The notes under the pieces: generated by a model
What the model was told of the DNA's origin: nothing
The model's input: only the letters and a program-made list of their open reading frames with translations
Databases searched by the model: none
Source: an uncultured Pseudomonadota bacterium
Lineage (GTDB): Bacteria > Pseudomonadota > Gammaproteobacteria > Steroidobacterales > Steroidobacteraceae
Assembly: GCA_903832085.1 (NCBI GenBank)
Contig: CAIKZZ010000001.1
Coordinates: 62,001 to 126,000, forward strand
DNA: 64,000 bases
Direction of reading: 5' to 3'
Made by a program: the position numbers and the translations under genes
Part shown: positions 9,872-13,617 of the stretch, one piece after another
Numbering within the stretch: position 1 is the first letter of the stretch
Layout of the letters: the number at the start of each line of letters is the position of its first letter

Positions 9872-10825
9872 TTACTCTGGTTTAGTATGTAAAGCAGCAC
9901 TACTCGTGTCTGCCCCCATACTCAAAATTCCCTGCATCACACGTGCAGCTGAGGAAGCTCCGTTATCCATAAAGATTACTTTGCCCTGCCCATGATCCGC
10001 TACATATTTCAGGGCATCGGTATATTCAAGAAACAGTAAAAACTCGGCTGTCACACCAGCAGCCTTCAGGCTGTCGGCCGCATCTTTCATGCCTGAGGCA
10101 ATGTTCTTCCTAAAAAGTGCCAGCCCTTCTCCACGTAACGCAGATGCTTTCTTTTCGGCTTCTGCACCGATCGTTTTGTAAGCAGCTTCCGCTTCAGCGT
10201 CTTTGGTGCGCTTGACGAGCAAGGCCGCACCCTCATTTGAAGCAGCAGCCAGTAAATTCTTTGAAGAAACCACCCGCGCCATCGAATCAATAATCTCTTT
10301 ATCAAAGGTCATATCAGTAATCTGTATATCTCTGACCACATATCCCCAGTTCAAGACCACCTCATCAAGATTCTTCTTGGTGTGATCAACAATTTCAGCC
10401 CTCATACCTAGAATATCGGATTGCTTCGTTGTTGCAACAAACTGCCGGATTGAGCCGTCAATGGTTCGTTGCAGTGCTAACTGAAACTCCTGTGGAGTTG
10501 CAAAACTGAACACCGCTTTCTTGATGGCCTCTTCATCAGAACCTGCCACCGCATACAACACCATCGTGGCGAACTTAACGTTCGCCTGATCCTGAGTAAT
10601 TGCCTGAAACTCAAGTTGGAGCGCCCGATTTTGCAATGACAACCGATAACTCAGTTTTTCCCACGGCATTTTGAAGTTCAGCCCCTCGCGCATGACTCGA
10701 TGGTACTTTCCAAATAATGTAATAACGCCCACAGTCGCCTGCGGGATCGTACGTGCCATGGTAAAAGCAAGGTAGATCGCAAATACTGCGATCATGAATA
10801 AGACTACTGTCGAAAAGTCAGCCAT
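9872..10825 (-). CDS. SPFH/Band 7 domain membrane protein
   Basis: This is a 317-aa protein of the stomatin/prohibitin/flotillin/HflK superfamily, which oligomerises at membranes and often scaffolds proteases or microdomains. One N-terminal membrane helix ('VVLFMIAVFAIYLAFTMA') is followed by the SPFH domain ('AAVGVITLFGKYHRVMREGLNF'-like stretch, residues ~25-190). An Ala/Glu/Lys-rich helical segment then follows ('KDAEAEAAYKTIGAEAEKKA', ~205-240), as in coiled-coil tails of the family. GGAGGG is well placed before the ATG. No NfeD-like or protease partner lies beside it, so its specific role is open. Confidence 0.9.
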   Translation of the reverse strand: MADFSTVVLFMIAVFAIYLAFTMARTIPQATVGVITLFGKYHRVMREGLNFKMPWEKLSYRLSLQNRALQLEFQAITQDQANVKFATMVLYAVAGSDEEAIKKAVFSFATPQEFQLALQRTIDGSIRQFVATTKQSDILGMRAEIVDHTKKNLDEVVLNWGYVVRDIQITDMTFDKEIIDSMARVVSSKNLLAAASNEGAALLVKRTKDAEAEAAYKTIGAEAEKKASALRGEGLALFRKNIASGMKDAADSLKAAGVTAEFLLFLEYTDALKYVADHGQGKVIFMDNGASSAARVMQGILSMGADTSSAALHTKPE

Positions 10826-11121
10826 GGGTATTCCCTCCTATGGGATTGCCGGACAAACCCAAGACCGCCTCTTACAAAGCAAGGTCTGGGATATCTCTGC
10901 AGTATGAACTGCTTTTTAAGCACTTGCCTAGCGTACATGGATAGTCTGTAGCGCTAAGCTGTCAGCACGTTAAGCAGAGGTTCAACTTACTCATACAAGC
11001 ACGCATGCGGCAGGATTCGGTCAAGAGACACGAGGGGATACGTGCAGGTCCACTCGCGCAGCTAGTACTGATCCGATAGCACAAGGCTTCATCGAACAGG
11101 CAACTGGCTGCTCGAAGCGCG
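10826..11121. other. gene-free gap
   Basis: This gap of about 296 bases separates the GH99-like gene from the SPFH gene, both leftward. It should hold the SPFH promoter; the only clear element is the SPFH ribosome binding site. The 69-codon ORF at 10962-11171 overlaps the 3' end of the GH99-like gene and looks spurious. No copy of the tRNA-Ile 3' end (a possible attachment site) is present. Confidence 0.4.
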
Positions 11122-12174
11122 CTACTCGCCAAAAAGCGCTCGTCGAGTGGCAGCAAGATATGCAAGATCATGCTTCAAGTCAGGCTCTAAATGCGCGCCC
11201 TCTGACCATTCGTTCCACGCATTAATAAACAACAATTGGCGGTCCACTGGCATGTTTACGCGCGTGTAGGACACTAGCTCCTTAAGCCATCTTTGATATG
11301 CCTCAGGACTGCTGTTAAGAAACGTCAAACCGGAATCCTGTTTGCGTGCCGTATTGTCCCACGACGGCATAATGCCGCGGTACATCGTAAAAGCAGGTAC
11401 CCCGCGCGCAAGTGACGAAGAGACGACTTTTTCATAATCGGCATATACATGATTTTGTGAGTTCACATTTATGCGAACTGGGCGCTGCTCGACTGGCCAA
11501 AAGAAACCATGCGGTGGAAACTCAACGAGCGCGTCAAAACCGTAGGAACTCGGATCGGTCATCGGATGCGCGTATGACATGACTGAAACCAAATGCAACC
11601 CTTTAAGTCCAGCACGTTTTGCTTCCTCTCTCCAACATAGCGCTGTTTCAGTCGCACTGGGCAAGTCGTCGGTCCTATACACGAGAATGACTGGTTTACC
11701 ATCGACCTGGATGTAGCGCGGATCTTTTAATAGAGGCAGCAAATCACAAAAAAACTGGCGATCCATCTCAGCGGAGTATTGTTGTTCCAACAATATATCT
11801 GTATCCAACCCATACCACGTTCGTGACCAGCTCTCATTCGCCCAACAAATACAAAATGGGAAATTGATATCAGACGAAAGAAAATTGTTGACGGGAGTCT
11901 CAAGGATTCTCCGTCCACCAAACCAGTAATGATAAAAACAAAAGCCAAAAACACCATAATCCCGCGCAAGTGCCACTTGCGCCTGCATGACCTCCGGTAG
12001 GCGCAGATCATAAAATCCAAGGTGCTTTGGAATGTGTGGCTGGTAGTGGCCCACAAAATTAGGCTGAGCTCGCGCCACCATGGTCCACTCTGTAAATCCC
12101 TCGCCCCACCATTGGGAGTTTTCTTTTACCGGATGAAACTGTGGTAAGTAAAAAGCGACTGGCTTGACACTCAT
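11122..12174 (-). CDS. GH99-like (WbsX-type) glycan protein
   Basis: This is a 350-aa protein of the WbsX / glycoside-hydrolase-99-like family, found in O-antigen and other polysaccharide clusters. It has the full set of family signatures: 'FYLPQFHPVKENSQWWGEGF' at the N-terminus, 'FGFCFYHYWFGGRRILE', 'FPFCICWANESWSRTW', and 'FINAWNEWSEGAHLEPD' near the C-terminus. No signal peptide is present, so it is probably cytoplasmic. Members are thought to trim or modify cell-surface or rhamnan-type glycans, but few are characterised. It follows the methyltransferase gene by 3 bases, so the two are almost certainly co-transcribed. This stretch looks more AT-rich than its surroundings. Confidence 0.9.
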   Translation of the reverse strand: MSVKPVAFYLPQFHPVKENSQWWGEGFTEWTMVARAQPNFVGHYQPHIPKHLGFYDLRLPEVMQAQVALARDYGVFGFCFYHYWFGGRRILETPVNNFLSSDINFPFCICWANESWSRTWYGLDTDILLEQQYSAEMDRQFFCDLLPLLKDPRYIQVDGKPVILVYRTDDLPSATETALCWREEAKRAGLKGLHLVSVMSYAHPMTDPSSYGFDALVEFPPHGFFWPVEQRPVRINVNSQNHVYADYEKVVSSSLARGVPAFTMYRGIMPSWDNTARKQDSGLTFLNSSPEAYQRWLKELVSYTRVNMPVDRQLLFINAWNEWSEGAHLEPDLKHDLAYLAATRRALFGE

Positions 12175-12177
12175 TCA

Positions 12178-12996
12178 CTAAACCCGCGTTTTAGGATGTG
12201 ATGAATGCCGCAATGCGAGTTCTGCTGGCGAAAGCACAGCATCTTCAGCCCGTTGAATGTTAAATAATATTTGCTGCGAGTTTAGGCAGACAAACTGTTC
12301 ATGGCTTTGCACGATAAGCTGGACGCCGCCAAAGTCCACCTGCGCTGGAAAAGCGTTGGGAGGATATTTGTGTTTATCAACGCAATAATTGACGACAAAT
12401 GCTCTCTCGACAATGCGAAAGCCCGTCTCGTAAAACATTTTTTCCATCTCAAAGAGCGTAAAAAACCGAATGTGCGTGACATCAAGCAGACCTGTCAGCT
12501 GATATTGCCAGTAGCCATTTGCTAAATCCTGCAGTACCGCTGCATACCCAATATTCGGAAGGCTGATGATCAACTGGGCTGTCGGCGCGAGATGGCGCGC
12601 TAAAAAACATAAGGTGCCCCACGGGTCATACATATGCTCGAGCACATCGAGCAATAGAACCGTATCCATCGTTGGCAAAAGCTGGATTTCAGCCTCACCA
12701 GCTTCCGTCAATGAGCAGCGTGTGACGCGATCGAGATGCTTCTCGGCCTCATCGGCGGCTTGACTGATTTCTACCCCCCAGCAAAAAAGGCCTGGGTATT
12801 TTTGCCTCAGTCTTTTGCTAACCATACCGTCCGCACAGCCAATATCGAGTAGCCGCTGAGGAGGATTTAAGACCACGCAGTCTATTTCGGGACGTCCCTC
12901 TCCCGCCTCGTATGGTGTGTCGACTCTAGCGCCACCACCACTGCCGAGCACTTTCCAAGCCGGATTGGCATCTGTACGCGGGGGATCTGCCGTCAT
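12178..12996 (-). CDS. class I SAM-dependent methyltransferase
   Basis: This is a 272-aa methyltransferase. Motif I is 'LLDIGCADGMVSKRL' (SAM binding), followed by an acidic 'GVEISQAA' and 'VLLLDVLEHMYDPW', the 'D.LEH' motif of the Methyltransf_23/UbiG-like group. Pairing with a WbsX-like gene suggests methylation of a sugar or glycan end, but small-molecule substrates cannot be excluded. It is the upstream gene of the pair, about 270 bases downstream of the tRNA-Ile gene on the same strand. The N-terminal 'KVLGSGGGARVDTPYEAGEG' is poorly conserved. Confidence 0.88.
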   Translation of the reverse strand: MTADPPRTDANPAWKVLGSGGGARVDTPYEAGEGRPEIDCVVLNPPQRLLDIGCADGMVSKRLRQKYPGLFCWGVEISQAADEAEKHLDRVTRCSLTEAGEAEIQLLPTMDTVLLLDVLEHMYDPWGTLCFLARHLAPTAQLIISLPNIGYAAVLQDLANGYWQYQLTGLLDVTHIRFFTLFEMEKMFYETGFRIVERAFVVNYCVDKHKYPPNAFPAQVDFGGVQLIVQSHEQFVCLNSQQILFNIQRAEDAVLSPAELALRHSSHPKTRV

Positions 12997-13262: not shown

Positions 13263-13617
13263 TGGTGGGCCCGCTGGGATTCGAACCCAGAACCAAGGGA
13301 TTCACTGAACCCCGCGATTTCCCGCGGGAGTGGACTATCTCTTCACCCTCGTAACTGCGCCCAAGGCTCAGCCACGGTCGGGCGCGGGACGCTCTAGCCT
13401 GTTATTAAGGACACTTAGGCCTTTCGACCTCGCCCCCAGGTAGTCTCTGCACCTTCCGGCGGTGTACCGCCGGCTTGGCTCAGGGTTGCCATCCTGCTTA
13501 CGCAGGTACAGGTTTCCCTGAATTCATCCCGTCCACTTTACGCTTTACAACGTAAAGGCACCTTCTCGACATTCCGAGTCGATGAGTCCCCTGCTCTAAC
13601 CGTTGAGCTACAGGCCC
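13263..13617 (-). tRNA. tRNA-Ile2 (anticodon CAU), split by a group I intron
   Basis: Reading leftward, GGGCCTG (13617-13611) pairs with CGGGCCC before an encoded ACCA (end at 13263), forming a full 7-bp acceptor stem with one G-T pair. The D arm ('TAGCTCAACGGTTAGAGCA') and T arm ('CTGGGTTCGAATCCCAG') are canonical. Exon 1 (13617-13582, 36 nt) ends in the anticodon CAT. Exon 2 (13302-13263, 40 nt) begins AATCCCTTGG. Joined, they give a 76-nt tRNA with loop CTCATAA and stem GGGGA/TCCCT. The sequence matches the isoleucine CAU type, whose C34 must become lysidine (TilS) to read AUA, rather than initiator or elongator Met, but this identity is from comparison by memory. Normal function requires intron removal. 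Confidence 0.93.
13303..13581 (-). ncRNA. group I intron (ribozyme) in tRNA-Ile(CAU)
   Basis: This 279-nt insertion lies between tRNA positions 36 and 37. The upstream exon ends in T and the intron ends in G, as group I chemistry requires. Core elements in order: P2 CTTTACG/CGTAAAG; P3 candidate CGGGA/TCCCG; P4 TCAGGG/CCCTGA; P5 CCTGC-GTAA-GCAGG; the conserved joiner 'ATGGCAACCCTGAGCCAAGC'; P6 CCGGCGG/CCGCCGG; P7 GACTA/TAGTC within 'GTGCAGAGACTA' and 'GATAGTCC'; P8 GCGCCC/GGGCGC; P9 CCCGC/GCGGG. The core closely resembles the small subgroup IC3 intron of Azoarcus tRNA-Ile(CAU). It encodes no homing endonuclease. A GTG near the 5' end (in 'AAGGTGCC') could serve as the guide pairing with exon CAT. 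Self-splicing is inferred. Confidence 0.92.

What the first reader, a model, noticed from the sequence alone, without database searches (positions are those of the whole stretch)
13263..13617. Group I intron inserted just 3' of the anticodon of tRNA-Ile(CAU)
The sequence shows a 36-nt 5' exon ending in CAT and a 40-nt 3' exon that together form a perfect 76-nt tRNA, split by 279 nt whose borders (exon T, intron G) and core stems fit a group I ribozyme. From memory, the same site in tRNA-Ile(CAU) hosts the well-studied 205-nt Azoarcus intron in a betaproteobacterium; I recall few gammaproteobacterial examples. tRNA-Ile2 is normally essential for reading AUA codons, so the cell would depend on self-splicing before lysidine modification.
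Basis: partly seen in the sequence, partly recalled or inferred. Interest (0 to 1): 0.85.

Follow-up and report, generated by a model that had tools for sequence, protein, structure and literature searches.

The report
Self-splicing intron in an isoleucine tRNA
[quoted passage not shown] this is real, but the same arrangement is known from relatives of Azoarcus and turns out to be common in Gamma- and Betaproteobacteria.

Summary
On the minus strand, a 36-nt 5' exon (13617-13582) and a 40-nt 3' exon (13302-13263) join into a 76-nt CAU cloverleaf, split by a 279-nt group I intron (13581-13303; RF00028, 70.6 bits, E 6.8e-16). A hand-drawn P1-P9 structure is supported by covariation in 13 same-genus and 48 wider homologues. 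The exons are tRNA-Ile2: C4-G69/C5-G68 are present and an elongator Met gene lies elsewhere. No intact Ile2(CAU) was found in the 98.9%-complete genome, TilS is encoded and AUA codons are used, so splicing is probably required; splicing itself is untested. At least 24 of 369 sampled genomes of the class carry an interrupted Ile2 gene and only 1 of those 24 also has an intact copy. Named carriers include Dyella, Lysobacter, Luteimonas, Rhodanobacter, Variovorax and Limnohabitans. Introns in tRNA-Ile2 were already published for Azoarcus, Acidovorax and Burkholderia. One modest point of interest: the window's lineage has a strongly covarying P7.1-like extension between P7 and P3, which Azoarcus-type introns lack. 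It is an ordinary, well-supported member of a known kind.

The parts
13582..13617 (-). 5' exon of tRNA-Ile2(CAU), 36 nt, ends in anticodon CAU
   Evidence: forms a 76-nt cloverleaf with the 3' exon; identical 36-mer in several same-genus genomes
13303..13581 (-). group I intron, 279 nt, inserted after U36; first base C, last base G (omega-G)
   Evidence: Rfam RF00028 70.6 bits; covarying homologues
13263..13302 (-). 3' exon of tRNA-Ile2(CAU), 40 nt including encoded CCA
13559..13584 (-). P1: exon CAU (13584-13582) pairs with guide GUG (13561-13559), U-G at the splice site; hairpin P1x 13578-13575/13568-13565 in between
   Evidence: CAU/GUG unchanged in 48 of 48 homologues; P1x covaries within the genus
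13536..13557 (-). P2, 9 bp, GUAA tetraloop
   Evidence: 5 of 9 pairs with two-sided changes in the genus, all 9 in the wider set
13385..13531 (-). P3 (13531-13525 / 13391-13385), 7 bp
13452..13522 (-). P4 (13522-13517/13484-13479), P5 (13512-13511/13490-13489), P5a, P6 (13478-13477/13453-13452), P6a
13333..13445 (-). P7 (13445-13441 / 13337-13333), guanosine-binding helix GACUA/UAGUC
   Evidence: unchanged in 48 of 48
13398..13440 (-). P7.1-like extension between P7 and P3: 13440-13437/13401-13398, 13435-13432/13412-13409, 13430-13426/13421-13417
   Evidence: first two helices 100% and 99% paired in 48 homologues with two-sided changes in 7 of 8 pairs; absent from the Azoarcus-type introns that could be read
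13345..13383 (-). P8 and its extension
13311..13328 (-). P9, 7 bp, GAAA tetraloop
   Evidence: 5 of 7 pairs with two-sided changes in the genus, 7 of 7 in the wider set

Best explanation
[quoted passage not shown] The anticodon CAU at the end of the 5' exon pairs with the internal guide GUG to form P1 with a U-G pair at the splice site. Exogenous guanosine bound in P7 attacks after U36, the freed U36 attacks after the intron's terminal G, and the exons join into tRNA-Ile2. TilS then changes C34 to lysidine so that the tRNA reads AUA. Shown here: anatomy, conserved core, covariation, absence of an intact second copy in a 98.9%-complete assembly, presence of TilS. Inferred: that it splices, that this happens without protein help, and that splicing precedes lysidine formation. 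The intron is old in its genus and inherited with it rather than freshly acquired.
For: RF00028 70.6 bits. 76-nt CAU cloverleaf after joining. C4-G69 and C5-G68, the acceptor pairs known from E. coli as TilS determinants (own knowledge), are present; elongator Met is a different, uninterrupted gene at a contig end and initiator Met is separate. No other TAGAGCNNNNNNCTCAT match and no intact Ile2 in the genome. TilS 145 bits. AUA 7.2 per 1000 codons in window ORFs. Structure: 96.6% of cells paired, 28 pairs with two-sided changes, 0 of 500 shuffles, slid controls 36-43%; wider set 92.5%, 56 pairs, 0 of 500. Introns of the genus form one clade, support 0.988, in 13 of the 14 congeners searched, with the same neighbour gene rmuC in most of the congeners compared. 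23 of 24 sampled carriers of the class, and all 13 intron-bearing congeners, lack an intact copy matching the pattern.
Against: No RNA data. The assembly is in 48 contigs and some tRNA genes were not found (His, Ile-GAU, Ala-UGC, Thr-GGU among them), so an intact Ile2 in a gap is not strictly excluded. No sigma-70-like promoter was recognised by the simple scan.
Confidence: 0.95

Rival explanations
1. A decayed intron in a dead tRNA gene copy, with an intact Ile2 gene elsewhere.
For: The genome is a 48-contig assembly with missing tRNA genes.
Against: No intact copy by three searches, nor in any of 13 congeners; core helices invariant and peripheral helices kept by compensatory changes; both exons intact.
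Confidence: 0.03
2. The host is elongator tRNA-Met(CAU), not tRNA-Ile2.
For: ARAGORN labels the joined exons tRNA-Met by anticodon alone.
Against: A separate elongator-Met-like gene with anticodon loop TTCATAA lies at the end of contig C45; exons carry the Ile2 signature GGTTAGAGCAGnnGACTCATAATCnnTTGG and C4-G69/C5-G68.
Confidence: 0.02
3. Splicing of this intron acts as a regulatory gate on AUA decoding, for example by guanosine supply or a protein cofactor.
For: The gene is the only Ile2 copy and the intron persists across a genus.
Against: No direct evidence; close family members do without it; persistence is also explained by neutral inheritance.
Confidence: 0.05

Closest known systems
Azoarcus sp. 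BH72 pre-tRNA-Ile(CAU) group IC3 intron (Reinhold-Hurek and Shub 1992; Tanner and Cech 1996, both cited in PMC4033280; crystal structures cited in PMC3984707)
   Same: Same tRNA and same site after U36, CAU/GUG P1 with U-G at the splice site, same P3-P9 core order, terminal G.
   Different: About 205 nt and, per PMC4498298, without the P7.1 extension; ours is 279 nt with a P7.1-like extension and a P1 hairpin, and falls in another clade. Azoarcus itself was compared from memory and via similar introns, not fetched.
tRNA-Ile2 group I introns in Acidovorax and Burkholderia (tRNAscan-SE 2.0 paper, PMC8450103)
   Same: Same host tRNA and the same reason why annotation programs miss it.
   Different: Betaproteobacterial; that paper gives no structures in the part read. 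Betaproteobacterial introns found here (Variovorax L119, Comamonadaceae L072) also have a long P7-P3 spacer.
Cyanobacterial tRNA-Leu(UAA) and tRNA-fMet group I introns (PMC3984707, PMC4033280)
   Same: Group I introns in the anticodon loop of an essential tRNA.
   Different: Other tRNAs and positions.
Phage T4 td intron, group IA2 (PMC4498298)
   Same: Extension (P7.1/P7.2) between P7 and P3.
   Different: Protein-coding host gene; only the position of the extension is alike, homology of the extension was not tested.

Membership tests
Group I catalytic intron (Rfam RF00028) | Covariance score above the curated cut-off | tested here: met
   70.6 bits vs 50, model 1-253 complete
Group I catalytic intron (Rfam RF00028) | P3-P9 core with pseudoknotted P3/P7 | tested here: met
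   P3 and P7 pair in all 13 congeners and 98.8-100% of cells in 48 homologues
Group I catalytic intron (Rfam RF00028) | U-G pair at the 5' splice site and terminal G | tested here: met
   U-G in 48 of 48; G as last intron base in all rows of A2
Group I catalytic intron (Rfam RF00028) | GTP-dependent self-splicing | not testable with these tools
   needs RNA
Group IC3 subgroup (Azoarcus type) | Core without an extension between P7 and P3 | tested here: not met
   51-nt spacer forming covarying P7.1/P7.1a; PMC4498298 states that td differs from the IC3 ribozymes by such an extension. Filed only as a group I intron, subgroup open.
tRNA-Ile2(CAU) | Cloverleaf with CAU, Ile2-type exon signature, distinct from both Met tRNAs | tested here: met
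tRNA-Ile2(CAU) | Lysidine synthase TilS encoded in the genome | tested here: met
   TIGR02432 145.1 bits vs cut-off 93.6

The most novel reading that the evidence does not exclude
Introns at the tRNA-Ile2 site in Gamma- and Betaproteobacteria are mostly not the Azoarcus type but a separate structural lineage, with a tRNA-intron core plus a P7.1-like extension otherwise known from group IA. It has persisted in single-copy, presumably essential genes, and the two types have entered the same site independently.
Probability: 0.4. Interest if true: 0.45.

Novelty: new member of a known kind. Interest (0 to 1): 0.3.

Why it matters
Annotation programs miss split tRNA-Ile2 genes (here ARAGORN finds none), so genomes appear to lack an AUA-reading tRNA that they have. 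A widespread intron in a single-copy tRNA gene, in two structural types at one site, is a good natural series for studying gain, loss and replacement of group I introns and the role of a P7.1 extension in a small ribozyme.

Tried and rejected
A genome-wide search for relatives through the neighbouring RmuC protein found nothing. DNA search of plasmids gave only a tRNA-half match. The idea that missing tRNAs in the own genome are also intron-split was not borne out: there is one RF00028 match only and the elongator Met gene is simply cut by a contig end. The idea that the tRNA 3' end is an attachment site of an element in the window was rejected: no second copy of the 3' exon in the window. A proper P10 pairing with the 3' exon could not be drawn convincingly for this type (inspection). 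Libraries hold open-access papers only, so absence of a published gammaproteobacterial case is weak evidence.

Full report
Observation. The window's minus strand carries GGGCCTGTAGCTCAACGGTTAGAGCAGGGGACTCAT (13617-13582), 279 nt of intervening sequence (13581-13303), and AATCCCTTGGTTCTGGGTTCGAATCCCAGCGGGCCCACCA (13302-13263). ARAGORN finds nothing in the window as it stands but reads the joined exons as a 76-nt CAU cloverleaf. cmscan gives RF00028 over 13594-13311 minus at 70.6 bits, E 6.8e-16, full model, the only Rfam match at gathering level in 64 kb.

Host gene. The tRNA is Ile2, not Met: the genome has a separate initiator tRNA and an elongator-Met-type gene with loop TTCATAA truncated at the start of contig C45. 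The exons have C4-G69 and C5-G68, which I recall as TilS determinants. In the 2.65-Mb, 48-contig, 98.9%-complete genome there is one RF00028 match, one TAGAGCNNNNNNCTCAT match, no intact 76-nt homologue and no TAGAGCAGNNGACTCATAATC match. TilS is present (145 bits). AUA is used at 7.2 per 1000 codons in 34 long window ORFs, in 31 of them. So the cell most likely needs the spliced product; a gap-hidden copy cannot be fully excluded because several other tRNA genes were also not found.

Structure. Thirteen introns from the window's genus were aligned (A1). The structure written by hand on the window's sequence has every pair standard, and on A1 96.6% of cells pair, with 28 pairs changed on both sides; none of 500 shuffles reached this and slid controls stayed at 36-43% paired. 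On 48 diverse introns (A2) the figures are 92.5% and 56 pairs, again 0 of 500. P1 CAU/GUG and P7 GACUA/UAGUC are invariant in all 48. Between P7 and the 3' strand of P3 lies a 51-nt spacer (36-95 nt in the other introns of this type) that folds as P7.1 (CCUG/CAGG) and P7.1a (GGGC/GUCC); these are 100% and 99% paired with two-sided changes in 7 of 8 pairs. PMC4498298 states that td (group IA2) resembles the Azoarcus and Synechococcus IC3 ribozymes except for an extension (P7.1/7.2) between P7 and P3. The window's intron therefore is a group I intron whose subgroup I leave open.

Distribution. RF00028 matches occur in 34 of 60 relatives. Most are in tRNA-Ile2 at the same site, the rest in 23S rRNA, tRNA-Leu or tRNA-Lys. 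With the relatives' loci, exon pairing recovered 137 loci with a cognate 3' exon, a few of which are not introns. Carriers include Dyella, Rhodanobacter, Lysobacter, Luteimonas, Woeseiaceae, Variovorax and Limnohabitans. In a sample of 369 genomes of the class, 24 carry an interrupted gene, and only one of those (G170) also has an intact one. Close family members such as G029 have an intact gene 97% identical to the spliced sequence, so presence is patchy.

Lineages. In a tree of the introns the genus forms one clade (0.988). The Azoarcus-like short introns form another (0.988), which includes G026, a member of the window's own family. Thus two kinds of group I intron occupy the same site within one family. 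The rmuC gene lies next to the split tRNA in most congeners compared, in line with vertical inheritance in the genus.

Literature. The Azoarcus intron at this site is classical (cited in PMC4033280, PMC3984707). The tRNAscan-SE 2.0 paper reports 36 bacterial genomes whose missing fMet or Ile2 gene is explained by group I introns, and names Acidovorax and Burkholderia for Ile2 (PMC8450103). The review PMC4033280 lists only cyanobacteria, alpha- and betaproteobacteria. I found no paper in the held library that describes the gammaproteobacterial cases or the P7.1 extension, but the library lacks most subscription journals.

Verdict. Real, functional-looking and well explained: a new member of a known kind, with one structural variant worth a specialist's note.

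Noticed in passing
G022:C17:60718-61246 (L188); G011:C58 and C10 (L192, L190); G026:C30 (L058); G045, G058 (L060, L061): Group I introns in 23S rRNA around CGGCGGCCGTAACTATAACGGTCCTAAGGTAGCGAAATTCCTTGTCGGGTAAGT in relatives; in G022 two Rfam matches lie only about 46 nt apart.
   Followed up: partly
L195 (G017), L194 (G023), L067 (G035), L197 (G047): Group I introns inside tRNA-Leu genes of gammaproteobacterial relatives; in L067/L194 the site looks like that of the cyanobacterial tRNA-Leu(UAA) intron.
   Followed up: partly
L043 (G051:C27:99536-99756): Group I intron in a tRNA that ARAGORN reads as Lys(CUU), in a relative of the same order.
   Followed up: no
L193 (G026:C4:128092-128289): Azoarcus-type short intron (198 nt, no P7.1) at the same tRNA-Ile2 site within the window's own family.
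   Followed up: yes
L107 (Hymenobacter coccineus NZ_MDZA01000155.1): A tRNA-Ile2 split by 667 nt that include a Cys/His-rich open frame resembling an HNH nuclease; Pfam gives only a sub-threshold treble-clef match. Possibly a homing-endonuclease intron; not verified.
   Followed up: partly
G170:C10:264905 and 277309: The one sampled carrier with both an interrupted and an intact tRNA-Ile2, 12.4 kb apart on the same strand, perhaps from an integrated element.
   Followed up: no
G046:C23, G059:C26, G026:C4, G030:C40 (L235), L105 (Rugamonas): Extra partial copies of tRNA-Ile2 (3' or 5' halves), some within kilobases of another copy, which look like attachment-site scars of integrative elements.
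   Followed up: no
L076 (contig titled Akkermansia muciniphila, MAG): Carries a tRNA-Ile2 intron gene that looks the same as that of Limnohabitans (L122, L161) in exons, length and intron ends; probably contamination of that assembly.
   Followed up: no
G014:C41:94100-94294 (L234): A second copy of the 3' part of the intron plus 3' exon at a contig end of a congener; assembly overlap or a second locus.
   Followed up: no
window 9872-12996 minus: Downstream of the tRNA: a methyltransferase, a WbsX-type glycosyltransferase and an SPFH/Band 7 protein.
   Followed up: partly
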